NCBI GenBank assembly: GCA_016787295.1
Contig: JAEUUX010000150.1
Location: 1 to 39,012 of the forward strand
Length of the DNA stretch: 39,012 nt
Direction: 5' to 3'
DNA from: Chitinophagales bacterium
Lineage (GTDB): Bacteria; Bacteroidota; Bacteroidia; Chitinophagales; UBA2359
How positions within the stretch are numbered: the stretch's first letter is position 1; every line of letters begins with the position of its first letter. The notes beneath the pieces were generated by a model. That model saw nothing but the letters and a program-made list of their open reading frames with translations. It had not been told where the DNA came from and ran no database searches. The position numbers and the translations under genes are program-made. Shown one piece after another: positions 1 through 38,933 of this stretch.

Positions 1-9
1 GACAAATTT

Positions 10-80
10 CACCCCGTCGGGGTTTATACCTTTTTTTGCTCCGTTTTTTTGCTATAAACCTATCACCCTTTCAGGGTTTA
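10..80. repeat. Two short hairpins with a shared CACCC...GGGTTTAT pattern
   Basis: ACCCC-gtc-GGGGT (11-23) and ACCC-tttca-GGGT (65-77) are each preceded by TTTC or TATC and followed by TTAT. Between them GGTTTATA (21-28) pairs with TATAAACC (53-60). The arrangement looks like a short dispersed palindromic repeat, or the remains of a terminator of a gene outside the window. The rest of 1-245 shows no gene. Confidence 0.35.
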
Positions 81-245
81 TTTGAATACTTTCTTATCGT
101 TGCTATTTTCAGAAATACCACTTAATAATGTCGTTATCAAAATTAGCAAAAGCTTTCATTATTGGCTTGACCTTGCTCTTCATTTTTCTCGAAAAACAAT
201 AAAAACACCTCCACACATCTAAAAATTCTTCCAAAATAAACCCAA

Positions 246-34075: not shown

Positions 34076-34542
34076 TATACTGAATTGAAAATACTTTTCG
34101 GATTTGATAATAGACGATGTTACGCACTTGCCCCAAAATGCCACATCAATTAACGGCAATTTGCCATTCCTCGAAATACTATTATCGTAAATGACAAATG
34201 GTGATTCTGCTTTTTTGCTCACCCAAAAAAGCAGCAAAAAAGGGTGTTCTTTTTTCGAGTGGATTCGTCCGGCGTGCTGTGGTCTTTGCTTAATTTTGTG
34301 GTAGCAAGCGAAATCGTAGGCATTTTGTCTGTTTCTCCACATTAGCTACCACAAAATGTAGGCAATCGTTGAGGCAGTTTATCGTTTTTTGTCTGTTTAG
34401 CAGTGACTTTCATGCCTCAACGACCGAAACAGCACTATTTCGGAGAACGAAAATAATGTAGGCAGATGTGCGTTTTTTGTGACCGCAATTATTCGCCTGA
34501 CAACATTTTACAAAATCCGAAGACTGTATTCAATTTAGTATA
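34076..34542 (+). mobile_element. MITE-like element, copy A (467 bp)
   Basis: It begins TATACTGAATTGAAAATAC and ends with the reverse complement of TATACTAAATTGAATACAG. Both ends lead to TTCGGATTT, making imperfect terminal inverted repeats of about 31 bases. A second copy, roughly 85-90% identical by eye, lies at 37287-37760. Inside are hairpins CTGCTTTTTTG/CAAAAAAGCAG (34207-34234), ATTTTGTGGTAGC/GCTACCACAAAAT (34293-34357) and CGTTGAGGCA/TGCCTCAACG (34367-34422). There is no transposase frame. The TATA ends would fit a TA target duplication. The rest of 33966-34598 shows no gene. Confidence 0.85.
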
Positions 34543-34613
34543 GTATAATTCTCGAATTTCGGCGAGTCAATAGATTAATTGAGCAAAAATGGCAAAATAT
34601 GCGTTTTTTTCCG

Positions 34614-34621
34614 TACCTTTG
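34614..34621 (+). promoter_or_regulatory. -7 box TACCTTTG for the DUF445 gene
   Basis: TACCTTTG followed by CTG lies inside the frame that opens at 34599 and 29 bases before the ATG at 34650. This rules out the upstream start. Confidence 0.65.
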
Positions 34622-34649
34622 CTGTTCAAAAAATCATTTTTTTTCAGAC

Positions 34650-35882
34650 ATGGCAAAAAAAGGTGACATTCGCTATGCTGCCACTGGTATGTTATTGGTA
34701 GCAATGGTGGTGTTTATTATTGCTCGGATTTTGGAGCATAGCTATCCCGCAATGGGCTATATTCGCGCTTTTGCAGAAGCCGCTATGGTGGGCGGGCTTG
34801 CCGACTGGTTTGCGGTGGTGGCGCTATTTCAGCATCCTTTGGGTATTCCTATCCCACATACCAACCTTATCAAGCTCAAACAAGCCGATTTTGCAGCAGG
34901 TTTGGGGCATTTTGTAGTAGAAAACTTCCTCAACGAACAATCCATCATGGTGCATTTGGATAAGGTGCGGTTCAGCGACGAAATTGTAGAATTTATTACC
35001 AAACAACAAAGTCCGCGCAAATTGGCACGACAGTTGGCACAACACGTCCCTTCGGTATTGGATAATCTCGACGACGAAGAAACCAACAAATTCATAGAAA
35101 GCAATTTGCGTGGGGTCATCGAAAACATAGATTCTGCCAATATCTTGTCCAAAATGTTGGAATACTTGATAGAAAAAGATTTGCACCAACATCTTTTGGC
35201 AGATATTTTGGACATTGCAGACCAATATGTGCATCAAGAAGTGGTTGAAACACGCATTTTGGAAGAAATTCGCAAACAACGCGAATGGTATTGGCCCCCT
35301 TCACAGATGATTACCGAAAAAATTGTGGACGTGTTGCGCACCCAAATTTCAGACATACAAGGCAATCCCGACCACGAAATGCGCTACAAACTAAACGGTT
35401 TCATAGAAAACTTTATCGACCAGCTCAAGAACTCACCCGACTATCAAAAAGCCGCCGAAAATATCAAATTGTCTTTGCTCAACAATACAGCTTTTGCAAC
35501 TTATTCGCAACAAGTGTGGAGTGATGTCAAAAAAGTTATTGAACGCGACATTGCCTCCGAAGGCTCACGCATAGAGCGCAGTTTGGAAAAAGCCCTCACC
35601 TACATGACCGACAAACTGCAAACCGACACACGCCTACAAGACCTCATTAACCAAACCCTCAAGCGTGAGGCGCTATATGCTATTTGCGATATGCGCGAAG
35701 AAATTGCAGGACACATCAGCCAAACAGTAGCTGGCTGGACCGACATCGCCGACCGCATCAACCAAGAAGTAGGCAACGACCTACAGTTTATCCGTATCAA
35801 TGGTACGTTGGTGGGCGGGAGTATTGGTTTGTTGCTCTACACCATTTTTGAGAAATTATTGCCTTATTTGGGAGTGTTGTAG
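34650..35882 (+). CDS. DUF445 family membrane protein
   Basis: From the ATG at 34650 the protein has 410 residues. It has an N-terminal helix (AATGMLLVAMVVFIIARI), the family signature AEAAMVGGLADWFAVVALFQHPLGIPIPHT, and a long helical middle rich in charged residues. It ends with a glycine-rich membrane segment (GTLVGGSIGLLLYTIFEKLLPYLG). DUF445 proteins (YjiN/YheB-like) are membrane proteins of unknown role. The gene is single, bounded by the MITE copy and its own terminator. Confidence 0.9.
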   Translation: MAKKGDIRYAATGMLLVAMVVFIIARILEHSYPAMGYIRAFAEAAMVGGLADWFAVVALFQHPLGIPIPHTNLIKLKQADFAAGLGHFVVENFLNEQSIMVHLDKVRFSDEIVEFITKQQSPRKLARQLAQHVPSVLDNLDDEETNKFIESNLRGVIENIDSANILSKMLEYLIEKDLHQHLLADILDIADQYVHQEVVETRILEEIRKQREWYWPPSQMITEKIVDVLRTQISDIQGNPDHEMRYKLNGFIENFIDQLKNSPDYQKAAENIKLSLLNNTAFATYSQQVWSDVKKVIERDIASEGSRIERSLEKALTYMTDKLQTDTRLQDLINQTLKREALYAICDMREEIAGHISQTVAGWTDIADRINQEVGNDLQFIRINGTLVGGSIGLLLYTIFEKLLPYLGVL

Positions 35883-35897
35883 CTTTTATCGAATAGG

Positions 35898-35938
35898 AAA
35901 AGGGCATTATCCATTTGCTTGGATAATGCCCTTTTTAT
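35898..35938 (+). terminator. Terminator of the DUF445 gene
   Basis: AAAAGGGCATTATCCA (35898-35913) pairs with TGGATAATGCCCTTTT (35920-35935), then T residues. It may also serve the minus-strand nuclease gene. Confidence 0.85.
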
Positions 35939-35948
35939 TGTATTTGGG

Positions 35949-36022
35949 GATATTGGTTTTTTATTTCGGCTGTGTTTAATATTTTTACGCCAAATTTTGC
36001 AATATTTCGCAAAATTTGGCGT
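35949..36022. repeat. 74-bp direct repeat, left copy, with hairpin
   Basis: It runs from GATATTGG to GGCGT and differs from 37031-37104 at about four positions. It ends in a perfect 14-bp hairpin, ACGCCAAATTTTGC/GCAAAATTTGGCGT, with an eight-base loop. The two copies flank the nuclease gene. Confidence 0.85.
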
Positions 36023-36044
36023 AGAATTTTTGGTTTTGGGTGGT

Positions 36045-36971
36045 TTACTTTTTATTCTTTGCGATGATTTGTTGGATTTCTTCTACTGTTTTTCGAGTAG
36101 ATATCGCGATAAGTTCAAAGTTTACACCGTTTTGATAGAAGTTTAAAATCGTCTGCTCTTCTTTTGCTTCCGCCTCTTTGCGCAATTGTTCTTCCTTTGC
36201 TTCCGCCTCTTTGCGCAATTGCTCTTTCTCCACTTCGGCTTTAGCTTCGGCTTCGGCTTTTCCCTCATCTCTCGCAAGCTCAATTTCACCTTTTTGGTCT
36301 TGTTCGCGCATACCTGCGTTCTGGTAAGCGATAAGATCCTCTTTTTTCCAAGAGTGTTTATCGGCTTCTTGATACGCTGTTTTTAAGCCTTCATCTTCTA
36401 TATCTTCGGGGATAACGTCCAAATTTCCCGCATTTTTGATGAAAAATGTCCACTTGTCTACCAAAGAAGCCAATTCATGGCGTTTTTTCTTGAACTTTGT
36501 CAATTGAATAAAACGATGTTGAATGTCACTCAAAACGCATTGACCTGTTTCTTCTTCGATACTGTAATGTTTAGAAAGGTAGTTTTTACCAAAGCCAATA
36601 CTAAAATTTAAAATACCGATAAAATAAGTTGGTTTTAGTTTCGGGTAGTCTTCGCCCCGATCTATTTGCATCGAATAGTCGCGGGAAGTGTAAAACTGCA
36701 CCCGTTTGTCAAAGCCTTTTTTATCCGCAACTTGCATCTCCACAATAAACTGTCGTCCGCGCTGGTCAGTTGCCCGCACGTCGAGGATGCTCGCTTTTTC
36801 ACCTTTGAGGCGTGGCAACAAATATGGGTCAATAATGGTGACTTTTGAAATGCGATTGCTGCCTTCCAAATCCAAAACGGCATTTAGAAAGGATATTAAA
36901 ACAATGCTCTTTTTTGAGTTGCCAAATATTTTTCGAAAGGCAACATCATTTTTTACGTCTACAAATTTCAT
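36045..36971 (-). CDS. PD-(D/E)XK nuclease-family 'transposase' (Rpn-like)
   Basis: The ATG at 36971 gives 308 residues. The start KFVDVKNDVAFRKIFGNSK fits the PD-(D/E)XK nuclease-transposase family (PF12784-like). The core has Asp64 (SILDVRATDQRG) and Glu78-Met-Gln80 (FIVEMQ). The middle contains YPKLKPTYFIGILNFSI, and residues 239-260 repeat EQLRKEAEAKE. A C-terminal helix pair, ELIAISTRKTVEEIQQII, resembles the tail of the Rpn protein at 11059-12102. Activity is inferred as DNA cleavage. The gene is bracketed by 74-bp direct repeats and lies between two MITE copies, which suggests a mobile cassette. Confidence 0.85.
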   Translation of the reverse strand: MKFVDVKNDVAFRKIFGNSKKSIVLISFLNAVLDLEGSNRISKVTIIDPYLLPRLKGEKASILDVRATDQRGRQFIVEMQVADKKGFDKRVQFYTSRDYSMQIDRGEDYPKLKPTYFIGILNFSIGFGKNYLSKHYSIEEETGQCVLSDIQHRFIQLTKFKKKRHELASLVDKWTFFIKNAGNLDVIPEDIEDEGLKTAYQEADKHSWKKEDLIAYQNAGMREQDQKGEIELARDEGKAEAEAKAEVEKEQLRKEAEAKEEQLRKEAEAKEEQTILNFYQNGVNFELIAISTRKTVEEIQQIIAKNKK

Positions 36972-36997
36972 CACGGAATAGGTTTAGTTTGAGAATG

Positions 36998-37005
36998 CAA
37001 AGATA
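36998..37005 (-). promoter_or_regulatory. -7 box TATCTTTG for the nuclease gene
   Basis: A minus-strand TATCTTTG followed by CATTC, 26 bases before the ATG at 36971. Confidence 0.6.
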
Positions 37006-37030
37006 CGGTTTTTTTGTGAATTTACTGCCC

Positions 37031-37104
37031 GATATTGGATTTTTGTCTCGGCTGTGTTTAATATTTTTACGCCAAATTTTGCAATATTTCGCAAAATTTG
37101 GCGT
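37031..37104. repeat. 74-bp direct repeat, right copy, with hairpin
   Basis: This is the second copy of the repeat at 35949-36022, with the same orientation and the same perfect 14-bp hairpin. It lies just upstream of the nuclease promoter. Confidence 0.85.
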
Positions 37105-37286
37105 TTGGTGTTTGTTTTTTGGGGGGATAAATTTGGTTGAACAAATATCCGATTTTTTTTACTTTTGTTTATGAACTTGGTTTTGTCGCTTCGGAGCTTT
37201 TTTAATTTCGTTGAACGGTTGGCATACACGCAGAGCGATAGCCTTGTCGTGTTGTGCAGTGTTGGACGATTTTTGTTTTTATTTGT

Positions 37287-37760
37287 TATACTGAATTGAA
37301 AATACTTTTCGGATTTGATAATGAACGATGTTACGTACTCGCCTCAAAATGCCACATCAATTAACGACCATTTGCCGTTCCTCCAAATGCTATTATCGTA
37401 AGTGACAAATGGTGATTCTGCTTTTTTGTTCACCCAAAAAAGCAGCAAAAAAGGGTGTTCTTTTTCAAGTGGATTCGTCCGGCGTGCTGTGGTCTTTGCT
37501 TAATTTTGTGGTAGCAAGCAGAATCGTAGGCATTTTGGCTGTTTTTCCTCATTAGCTACCACAAAATGTAGGCAATCGTTGAGGCAATTTATCATTCTTT
37601 GTCTGTTTAACCATGACTTTCATGCCTCAACGACCGAAACAGCACTATTTAGGGTGACGAAAATAGTGTAAGCAGATGTGCGTTTTTCGTGACCGCAATT
37701 ATTTGTCTCAAACACTGTCAACATTTTACAAAATCCGAAGACTGTATTCAATTTAGTATA
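37287..37760 (+). mobile_element. MITE-like element, copy B (474 bp)
   Basis: It has the same orientation and ends as copy A. The 13-bp and 10-bp internal inverted repeats are conserved although other positions differ. No coding frame is present. The spacer before it (37105-37286) holds an imperfect palindrome, GCATACACG (37222-37230) against CGTGTTGTGC (37248-37257). The spacer after it (37761-37916) shows no gene. Confidence 0.85.
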
Positions 37761-37916: not shown

Positions 37917-38933
37917 TCATTGCCTGCTGTTGTTCACGCTTCCATTCAATGACTTGTTTTGTAACCGTTTATTTCTTATTAGAATCCTAAAATACGGGCA
38001 TTTTCCTCCTATTGATAAGTCTTTATCATCGCTCCCTTTTCTGAATTTAATTATTTCAAATTGGTCAGGATTAAATTTATGTAGAAATGTTATAGGCACT
38101 CCCATATATCCGTCATAGTCTAATGGTATGTACTCGGTTTTATCAACGTTTATACCGTCATAATTATCATATTTCGGATATTCAGCTTCGTTCCCAAAAT
38201 ATTTTTTTGTGAGTTCTATATCTTCGTGCCTTTTGAAGTTATCTATGTTTGTCAACCATAAGCAATTGTTTGGCGAGACTATTCTATTTCCGCTGCTATC
38301 TATTCTCGCCTCTGTGCCATAAAGTTCGTAATGCTCAGGCACTATAAACCCTGAAACACCTCTGCCAAGATTAATCCCTAACCATGCTTTATTTTCTTTA
38401 ATTAATTTAAATATTTCTTTATAGGTTATTGCATTTATATTACCAATAATCAAATATTTCTTATCGTATTTAACCAATTGACCTACAAATTCTCTGAACA
38501 ATGAAAATGGTGGATTAGTAACGACAATGTCAGACTGTTTCAACAGTTCAACACTCTCTGGGCTGCGAAAATCTCCATCTCCATTAAAGTAAACAATATC
38601 AGTTGAACCTGGGTGCTTTATCTCGCCTTCTGTTCCTGTATATTCATAAAAAAACCCATTTTCACCATTTTCGGTGTTAAATAACTCTTTTTTTTGTTCT
38701 TGATAGCAAGCCGCAATCAATTTTTTTAGTCCTAATTCCTTAAAATTAGATGAAAAATATTTAAAAAAGTTGCTAATGCGAGCATCATCACAATTACAAA
38801 AAACCACCTTGTCCTTAAAGTGATTTTTATAGTATTGTAATTCACTCTCTATGTCACAAAGTTGCGTGTAGAATTCGTCACTCTTTGACTTTTTTGCTTT
38901 TTGCAATAATTTATTCGTTGCATTTCTTGCCAT
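37917..38933 (-). CDS. EcoRI-family adenine-specific DNA methyltransferase
   Basis: This 338-residue protein begins MARNATNKLLQKAKKSKSDE, essentially the start of M.EcoRI. It contains CNCDDARISNFFKYF, the catalytic TNPPFSLFREF (NPPF at 140-143), GRGVSGFIVPEHYELYGTEA and PITFLHKFNPDQFEIIKFRK, all as I remember them from M.EcoRI (326 residues). It should methylate the inner adenine of GAATTC and protect host DNA. The last 12 residues, after RILIRNKRLQ, go beyond M.EcoRI and may be read-through into a foreign junction. The gene is very AT-rich compared with the household genes, pointing to horizontal transfer. It begins 9 bases after the stop of the endonuclease frame. Confidence 0.95.
   Translation of the reverse strand: MARNATNKLLQKAKKSKSDEFYTQLCDIESELQYYKNHFKDKVVFCNCDDARISNFFKYFSSNFKELGLKKLIAACYQEQKKELFNTENGENGFFYEYTGTEGEIKHPGSTDIVYFNGDGDFRSPESVELLKQSDIVVTNPPFSLFREFVGQLVKYDKKYLIIGNINAITYKEIFKLIKENKAWLGINLGRGVSGFIVPEHYELYGTEARIDSSGNRIVSPNNCLWLTNIDNFKRHEDIELTKKYFGNEAEYPKYDNYDGINVDKTEYIPLDYDGYMGVPITFLHKFNPDQFEIIKFRKGSDDKDLSIGGKCPYFRILIRNKRLQNKSLNGSVNNSRQ

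What the first reader, a model, noticed from the sequence alone, without database searches (positions are those of the whole stretch)
34076..37760. A pair of ~470-bp MITE-like elements with several internal hairpins
Two same-direction copies (34076-34542, 37287-37760) share imperfect ~31-bp terminal inverted repeats and no coding frame. TATA ends fit a TA target, as used by IS630/mariner-type transposases, though that link is inference. Internal inverted repeats of 13 and 10 bp are intact in both copies while other positions differ. That suggests selected structure rather than simple decay; the element may make a structured RNA. The copies bracket DUF445 and the nuclease gene, so they could move or delete the 2.7 kb between them.
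Basis: partly seen in the sequence, partly recalled or inferred. Interest (0 to 1): 0.62.

Follow-up and report, generated by a model that had tools for sequence, protein, structure and literature searches.

The report
Jumping DNA family with conserved hairpins
The two repeats belong to a family of about 70 small non-coding jumping elements found only in this species; they insert at TA, freely swap pieces with one another, and keep internal hairpins as strictly as their ends, which suggests the hairpins help the element spread rather than help the host.

Summary
The genome holds roughly 65-75 insertions of this element (142 ends; none in close or order-level relatives). Paralogous empty sites at three loci prove a 2-bp TA duplication, so the mobile unit is 34078-34540 and 37289-37758. 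It is a TA-target MITE family; no autonomous element with these ends exists in the assembly, and the multi-copy IS630 present has different ends. Internal structure is real: besides hairpins it forms a three-way-junction core. Changes private to one copy fall evenly on ends, stems and loops. Changes shared by three or more copies avoid ends and stems and crowd the loops (stems 2, loops 56; p=1e-7). So the structure is held only while the element propagates; resident copies decay neutrally. Paired double changes occur in four helices, but loop inversions show arm-to-arm copying could also cause them, and there is no strand bias favouring RNA. Unexpectedly, copies are free recombinants: linkage falls to background within 40-80 bp, more completely than in a second repeat family of the same assembly. 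Composite movement of the genes between the pair is unsupported. Verdict: new MITE family with an unusual constrained core and extreme mosaicism; mobilising enzyme unknown.

The parts
34076..34077 (.). TA target duplication, left, copy 1
   Evidence: TA duplication shown at three paralogous filled/empty sites of the family
34078..34540 (+). MITE copy 1, mobile unit TACTGAA...TTTAGTA
34541..34542 (.). TA target duplication, right, copy 1
34076..34110 (+). left terminal inverted repeat, copy 1 (includes TA)
   Evidence: 35-nt arms, 80% complementary
34508..34542 (-). right terminal inverted repeat, copy 1 (includes TA)
34207..34234 (+). hairpin 1 CTGCTTTTTT/AAAAAAGCAG; stem covaries among copies, loop inverted in three copies
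34259..34308 (+). conserved core block almost free of changes shared by 3 or more copies
34274..34284 (+). outer helix of the three-way junction, 5' strand GTGCTGTGGTC
34293..34305 (+). stem 2 left arm ATTTTGTGGTAGC
34345..34357 (+). stem 2 right arm GCTACCACAAAAT
34366..34376 (+). stem 3 left arm TCGTTGAGGCA
34413..34423 (+). stem 3 right arm TGCCTCAACGA
34429..34435 (+). outer helix of the three-way junction, 3' strand ACAGCAC
34433..34458 (+). hairpin 4 (CACTATTT.../...AAATAATG in copy 1)
37289..37758 (+). MITE copy 2, mobile unit (TA at 37287-37288 and 37759-37760)
37287..37321 (+). left terminal inverted repeat, copy 2
37726..37760 (-). right terminal inverted repeat, copy 2
37418..37445 (+). 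hairpin 1, copy 2
37469..37518 (+). conserved core block, copy 2
37503..37567 (+). stem 2 arms (37503-37515, 37555-37567) with variable loop, copy 2
37576..37633 (+). stem 3 arms (37576-37586, 37623-37633) with variable loop, copy 2
37643..37668 (+). hairpin 4, copy 2 (CACTATTT/AAATAGTG)

Best explanation
These are two independent insertions of a non-autonomous transposable element (a MITE, about 465 bp) that inserts at TA and duplicates it. It was most likely cut and pasted by a Tc1/mariner/IS630-type transposase acting in trans on the terminal inverted repeats (shown: ends, TA duplication, copy number; inferred: enzyme). The interior carries a hairpin and three-way-junction core whose stems were kept as strictly as the ends in the lineages that propagated, while loops drifted and were reshuffled between copies (shown by shared versus private changes and linkage decay). 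The core is therefore probably needed for efficient propagation, as a DNA structure or protein-binding array such as a transpososome or host-factor site (inferred). Once inserted, a copy shows no further constraint and decays like neutral intergenic DNA (shown). The mosaicism probably arises from template exchange between copies during propagation, for example gap repair after excision using another copy as template (inferred).
For: 142 ends against 0 in the backwards control, and at least 40 long copies. Three paralogous filled/empty comparisons with a single TA in the empty site: L019 against L075/L136, L014 and L004; L008 against L114, L120 and L004; L128 against its own paralog. Private changes even (TIR 20 in 60 columns, stems 22 in 69, loops 25 in 80, rest 83 in 257) but alleles in 3 or more copies at TIR 4, stems 2, loops 56, rest 81; Fisher stems against loops p=1.3e-7, TIR against loops p=9e-6; same contrast with 74 copies. 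Paired double changes in 7 pairs and 26 cells, reached in 0 of 500 shuffles, including single-copy double changes in three core helices. Linkage falls to the permuted level within 40-80 bp and segment distances are uncorrelated. Copies are intergenic with no orientation bias.
Against: No autonomous partner was found: TIR searches return only this family and its derivatives in the own genome, and the two 3-mismatch hits in 395 order genomes equal the control level. The one IS630-type transposase found belongs to an element with different ends. A DDE transposase normally needs only the ends, so constraint on the interior is not explained by that model alone. The assembly is fragmented (296 contigs) and many copies end at contig breaks.
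Confidence: 0.7

Rival explanations
1. Ordinary MITE whose internal palindromes are incidental leftovers of a progenitor and not selected.
For: Neutral decay of resident copies. TA target and ends are all a Tc1/mariner-type transposase is known to need.
Against: Shared changes avoid the stems and the core block 181-230 by more than tenfold while private changes do not. Paired double changes exceed every shuffle.
Confidence: 0.15
2. The element encodes a structured RNA (regulatory or mobility-related) made from the + strand, and the RNA is what is selected.
For: Strong fold of the consensus with a three-way junction; paired changes; variable loops with constant stems.
Against: Unbiased strand test neutral: 19 G-U against 15 A-C shared alleles in pairs chosen without G-U. 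No Rfam match. No orientation bias towards genes. Inverted hairpin loops in three copies show that arm-to-arm copying can mimic covariation.
Confidence: 0.1
3. The stems persist because of a mutational process (template switching between hairpin arms) rather than selection.
For: Loop GCTCACCC is inverted to GGGTGAGC in L031, L088 and L101, with different stem letters in L101.
Against: The process would make arms evolve together, yet stems 2-4 keep the same letters in nearly all copies. Private changes in stems are as frequent as elsewhere, so correction is slow. Unpaired parts of the core are equally constrained.
Confidence: 0.1
4. The mosaicism is an artefact of metagenome assembly across repeats.
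For: Fragmented genome of 296 contigs; many contigs end inside copies.
Against: Contigs ending in the element share words of exactly 141 nt (140 in two pairs), implying k=141, while linkage is already lost at 41-80 bp, inside one word. A second repeat family of the same assembly retains linkage about twice the floor.
Confidence: 0.07
5. The two window copies form a composite transposon or a directed deletion unit for the DUF445 and nuclease genes.
For: Two same-direction copies 3.2 kb apart, with intact outer ends.
Against: The copies are 92.5% identical and each has closer relatives elsewhere: copy 1 with L002 94.6% and pL027 96.9%, copy 2 with pL112 98.6%. A second copy of the 2.7-kb cargo bracketed by the element was not looked for specifically.
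Confidence: 0.03

Closest known systems
RUP of Streptococcus pneumoniae (107 bp, thought to be mobilised by IS630-Spn1)
   Same: Non-coding, over 100 copies, TA target, terminal inverted repeats, intergenic (PMC2229807).
   Different: RUP shares its ends with a resident IS630 and has no reported internal functional motif; here no IS with these ends is found, the element is four times longer and has a constrained internal hairpin core.
Correia/NEMIS elements of Neisseria
   Same: High-copy non-coding element with inverted repeats and a net insertion 2 bp shorter than the repeat (107 against 105 bp; PMC2229807); one size class carries an internal IHF site suggested to help transposition.
   Different: No sequence relation was tested; length 107-155 bp against 465 bp; no multi-hairpin core described there.
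ERIC/IRU repeats of enterobacteria
   Same: Palindromic repeat grouped with MITEs, effects discussed at RNA level, no functional DNA motif beyond the ends (PMC2229807).
   Different: 127 bp; here about 465 bp with several internal hairpins around a junction.
REPINs (RAYT-associated hairpin doublets)
   Same: Within-genome family in which paired parts are conserved, spacer is variable and compensatory changes occur (PMC3116915); constraint is read as a requirement of the replicating unit.
   Different: Much shorter, built from REP doublets; the present element has long terminal inverted repeats and duplicates TA.
Porphyromonas gingivalis MITEs (BrickBuilt, MITE239, MITE464, MITE700)
   Same: Bacteroidota MITEs of several hundred bp with predicted stem-loops, 10-20 copies (PMC4596501).
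   Different: Their ends match IS5-family elements and BrickBuilt and MITE464 carry tandem repeats; these ends do not match and no tandem repeat was seen here.

Membership tests
MITE (non-autonomous miniature inverted-repeat element) | short, non-coding, with terminal inverted repeats | tested here: met
   467/474 bp, 35-nt arms 80% complementary; longest internal frame 25-89 aa and in different frames in different copies
MITE (non-autonomous miniature inverted-repeat element) | many dispersed copies with sharp edges at the inverted repeats | tested here: met
MITE (non-autonomous miniature inverted-repeat element) | target site duplication shown by filled and empty sites | tested here: met
   single TA in paralogous empty sites at three loci
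MITE (non-autonomous miniature inverted-repeat element) | an autonomous element with the same ends supplies the transposase | tested here: inconclusive
   none found in own genome, in 395 order genomes or in an exact scan of GTDB species contigs; the assembly is incomplete, so absence is not final
IS630/Tc1/mariner group | insertion at TA with duplication of TA | tested here: met
IS630/Tc1/mariner group | ends shared with a DDE_3 transposase element | tested here: not met
   the only DDE_3 match is an IS630-type element with ends TA|TAGTCAAAACAAATC, about 13 of 25 positions alike by eye, weak similarity at most
REPIN/RAYT elements | short REP doublet forming one hairpin, mobilised by a Y1 (RAYT) transposase | tested here: not met
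   465-bp unit with long TIRs and TA duplication; a RAYT gene was not searched for
structured non-coding RNA gene | known family or strand-specific conservation of pairing | tested here: inconclusive
   no Rfam match; pairs covary, but no G-U strand bias; expression not testable

The most novel reading that the evidence does not exclude
A mobile element whose spread depends on a folded internal core and in which every new copy is assembled by template switching between several resident copies (through gap repair, or an RNA or single-stranded intermediate), so that the family behaves like a sexually recombining population inside one bacterial genome.
Probability: 0.15. Interest if true: 0.8.

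Novelty: new variant of a known kind. Interest (0 to 1): 0.45.

Why it matters
Bacterial MITEs are usually taken to need only their ends. Here the split between private and shared changes indicates that an internal folded core is as constrained as the ends, but only in the lineages that spread. That makes the role of the core in mobility directly testable. The near-complete shuffling among about 70 copies is also unexpected for a bacterial repeat; if confirmed with long reads it would show that copies of a small transposon can exchange short segments faster than they diverge, which affects how such families are dated and classified.

Tried and rejected
Autonomous partner by ends and by transposase family PF13358 and PF01609: none; the ISAs1-type transposase next to one copy turned out to be an IS inserted inside a MITE (L103). 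Rfam, both thresholds: nothing (sub-threshold hits are chance). Exact TIR scans: one chance hit in Candidatus Heimdallarchaeum, none in viral contigs. Strand-specific RNA: an apparent G-U excess in the RNAalifold structure was circular, because that method prefers G-U; with pairs chosen without G-U it vanished. Transcription-terminator or promoter role: no orientation bias. Family 2 as control: four old divergent copies inflated its segment correlation (0.32 with them, 0.10 without), so I rely on the matched linkage comparison. Rpn nuclease palindromes as a nuclease-linked element: the other palindromes lie beside other genes.
Full report
Observation. The two copies exist at the stated coordinates, run the same way and end in imperfect inverted repeats. 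The stems are intact in both. A search of the window's own genome (5.42 Mb, 296 contigs) lists 42 matches, 40 of them covering most or all of the element. With up to 3 mismatches there are 65 right ends and 72 left ends, and 142 ends with a degenerate pattern, against none for the backwards control. Because many contigs end inside a copy, I estimate 65-75 insertions. None occur in 59 relatives, in the 19 other family genomes held, or, beyond chance, in 395 genomes of the order (two hits at 3 mismatches, two in the control). An exact scan of GTDB species contigs gave one chance hit and viral contigs none. Records of the window's own genome may be left out of those two scans.

Edges and target. 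All but a few of 40 aligned copies begin TATACTGA and end TTAGTATA. Joining the flanks of each insertion around a single TA and searching the fetched loci gave empty sites at three loci. L019 sits in a second repeat family whose empty copies read GGGTTTATT-TA-AATACTTT (97.8% over 137 bp in L075/L136; also L014 and L004). L008 sits in another repeat (L114, L120 and L004, about 80%, TTTAAACC). L128 has a paralog about 240 bp away with TTTAACAT; that insertion has one extra A at its left end. The net insertion is therefore two bases shorter than the TATA-to-TATA repeat and TA is duplicated. An ISAs1-type IS has itself landed in one copy (L103; transposase domains).

Interior. RNAalifold on 40 copies gives terminal pairing plus a three-way junction: outer helix GTGCTGTGGTC with GACC...ACAGCAC, enclosing a 20-bp stem 2 and a 9-11-bp stem 3, followed by hairpin 4. 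On a named structure of 80 pairs, 97.8% of cells pair, and 7 pairs or 26 cells show changes on both sides, which no shuffle of 500 reached. Most come from hairpin 1 (for example G-C 16, A-U 13, U-A 4 at one pair). The core helices contribute three single-copy double changes, in L093, L079 and L006 (sequences). By my own arithmetic, about 0.04 such events are expected if private changes (0.8% per site) fell independently. These may reflect selection for pairing, or copying of one hairpin arm onto the other; the latter does happen, since the hairpin-1 loop GCTCACCC is inverted to GGGTGAGC in three copies.

Where the constraint acts. Private changes (present in one of 40 copies) are evenly spread: TIR 0.33, stems 0.32, loops 0.31 and rest 0.32 per column. 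Alleles shared by three or more copies are not: TIR 4, stems 2, loops 56, rest 81 (stems against loops p=1.3e-7, stems against rest p=1e-4). Unpaired parts of the core are constrained too (1 shared allele in 53 columns). With 34 contig-end copies added the contrast holds (stems 3, loops 67). I read this as follows: after insertion a copy is free to decay, so the host is not using it in a sequence-specific way, but changes in ends, stems or core are not passed on to new copies. That points to a role in propagation. The evidence does not separate a DNA role from an RNA role: in pairs chosen without allowing G-U, shared alleles give 19 G-U and 15 A-C, so no strand is favoured. The core itself varies too little to inform this test.

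Shuffling. Nearby shared alleles are linked (r2 0.3-0.4 within 5 bp) but the correlation falls to 0.03-0.04 at 41-80 bp, where permutation gives 0.025-0.03. Pairwise distances in different segments of the element are uncorrelated (-0.10 to 0.08), and all 40 copies have distinct combinations at nine short blocks. Contigs that end in the element share words of exactly 141 nt, so the assembly probably used k=141 (inference) and the loss of linkage happens within one word. A bias remains: near-identical copies break the assembly, so they are under-represented among complete copies. As a control, a second repeat family of about 400 bp in the same assembly (17 copies after removing four old ones) keeps r2 of 0.12-0.15 beyond 40 bp, against a permuted level of 0.06-0.07. 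MITE subsets of 17 give 0.066-0.070, with maxima of 0.082-0.097. The MITE is thus shuffled more completely than a comparable family, although that family also shows some exchange.

Mobilising enzyme. The only DDE_3 (IS630) match lies near a contig end. Its ends, TA|TAGTCAAAACAAATCATA, recur at six contig starts, so that IS is multi-copy and inserts at TA, but its ends do not match the MITE. Six DDE_Tnp_1 loci have no matching ends, apart from the IS inside a MITE copy and a small TIR-bounded element beside one transposase. Part of the neighbouring sequence at that last locus is withheld (N) and was not pursued. The mobiliser is therefore lost, missing from the assembly, or has diverged ends.

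The genes in between. 34599-35882 is DUF445 (PF04286) and 36045-36974 is a PD-(D/E)XK nuclease of the PF12784 'transposase' family. The two MITEs are independent insertions with closer relatives elsewhere. Recombination between them could delete 3.2 kb; nothing indicates more.

Comparison with the known. In what it works like, the element is nearest to TA-target MITEs such as RUP and Correia (PMC2229807), and in its pattern of constant paired parts with a variable spacer it resembles REPINs (PMC3116915). As to membership, it meets the tested anatomical criteria of a MITE; the link to an autonomous IS630-type element was tested and not found.

Limits. There is one genome of the genus and no expression data. 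Gene context was judged from open frames only. Taxonomy of the genome was not determined. Literature support is from the open-access library only (PMC2229807, PMC3116915, PMC4596501, PMC10969869).

Noticed in passing
window 1-144; L136:1112-1514: Second high-copy repeat family of about 400 bp with ends TTTGATARCGACATTA and internal CACCCC/GGGGTTTAT hairpins, at least 40 places in the genome, sometimes nested with the MITE.
   Followed up: partly
window 35949-36052 and 37031-37134: 104-bp direct repeats, each with the palindrome ACGCCAAATTTTGC-N8-GCAAAATTTGGCGT, bracket the PD-(D/E)XK nuclease gene (36045-36974). Seven such palindromes exist in the genome; the others lie beside other genes.
   Followed up: partly
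L103/L140 (C85): An ISAs1-type insertion sequence (DDE_Tnp_1 plus DDE_Tnp_1_assoc) sits inside a MITE copy.
   Followed up: partly
L031, L088, L101, hairpin 1: The hairpin loop GCTCACCC is inverted to GGGTGAGC in three copies, with a different stem in L101, a sign of intra-hairpin strand switching.
   Followed up: partly
L084 (84 bp), L127/L145 (173 bp), L122, L123, L125: Elements or solo ends with the same left inverted repeat but other interiors, several with a terminator-like hairpin just inside the end.
   Followed up: no
L082, L107, L111, L126: Divergent relatives in which parts of the interior run in the opposite direction relative to the ends or are rearranged.
   Followed up: no
L082, L124, L126: GC-rich repeat GGGCGTTTCCCTGCGGGTCGGGCTGCTACGGGCTTCGC next to or inside MITE-related sequence.
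   Followed up: no
C41:44055 and starts of C23, C52, C135, C290, C292, C41: Multi-copy IS630-type element with ends TA|TAGTCAAAACAAATC, collapsed at contig ends.
   Followed up: partly
window 37917-38933: EcoRI-type adenine methylase gene (PF13651) next to the second MITE; whether a matching restriction gene is present was not examined.
   Followed up: no
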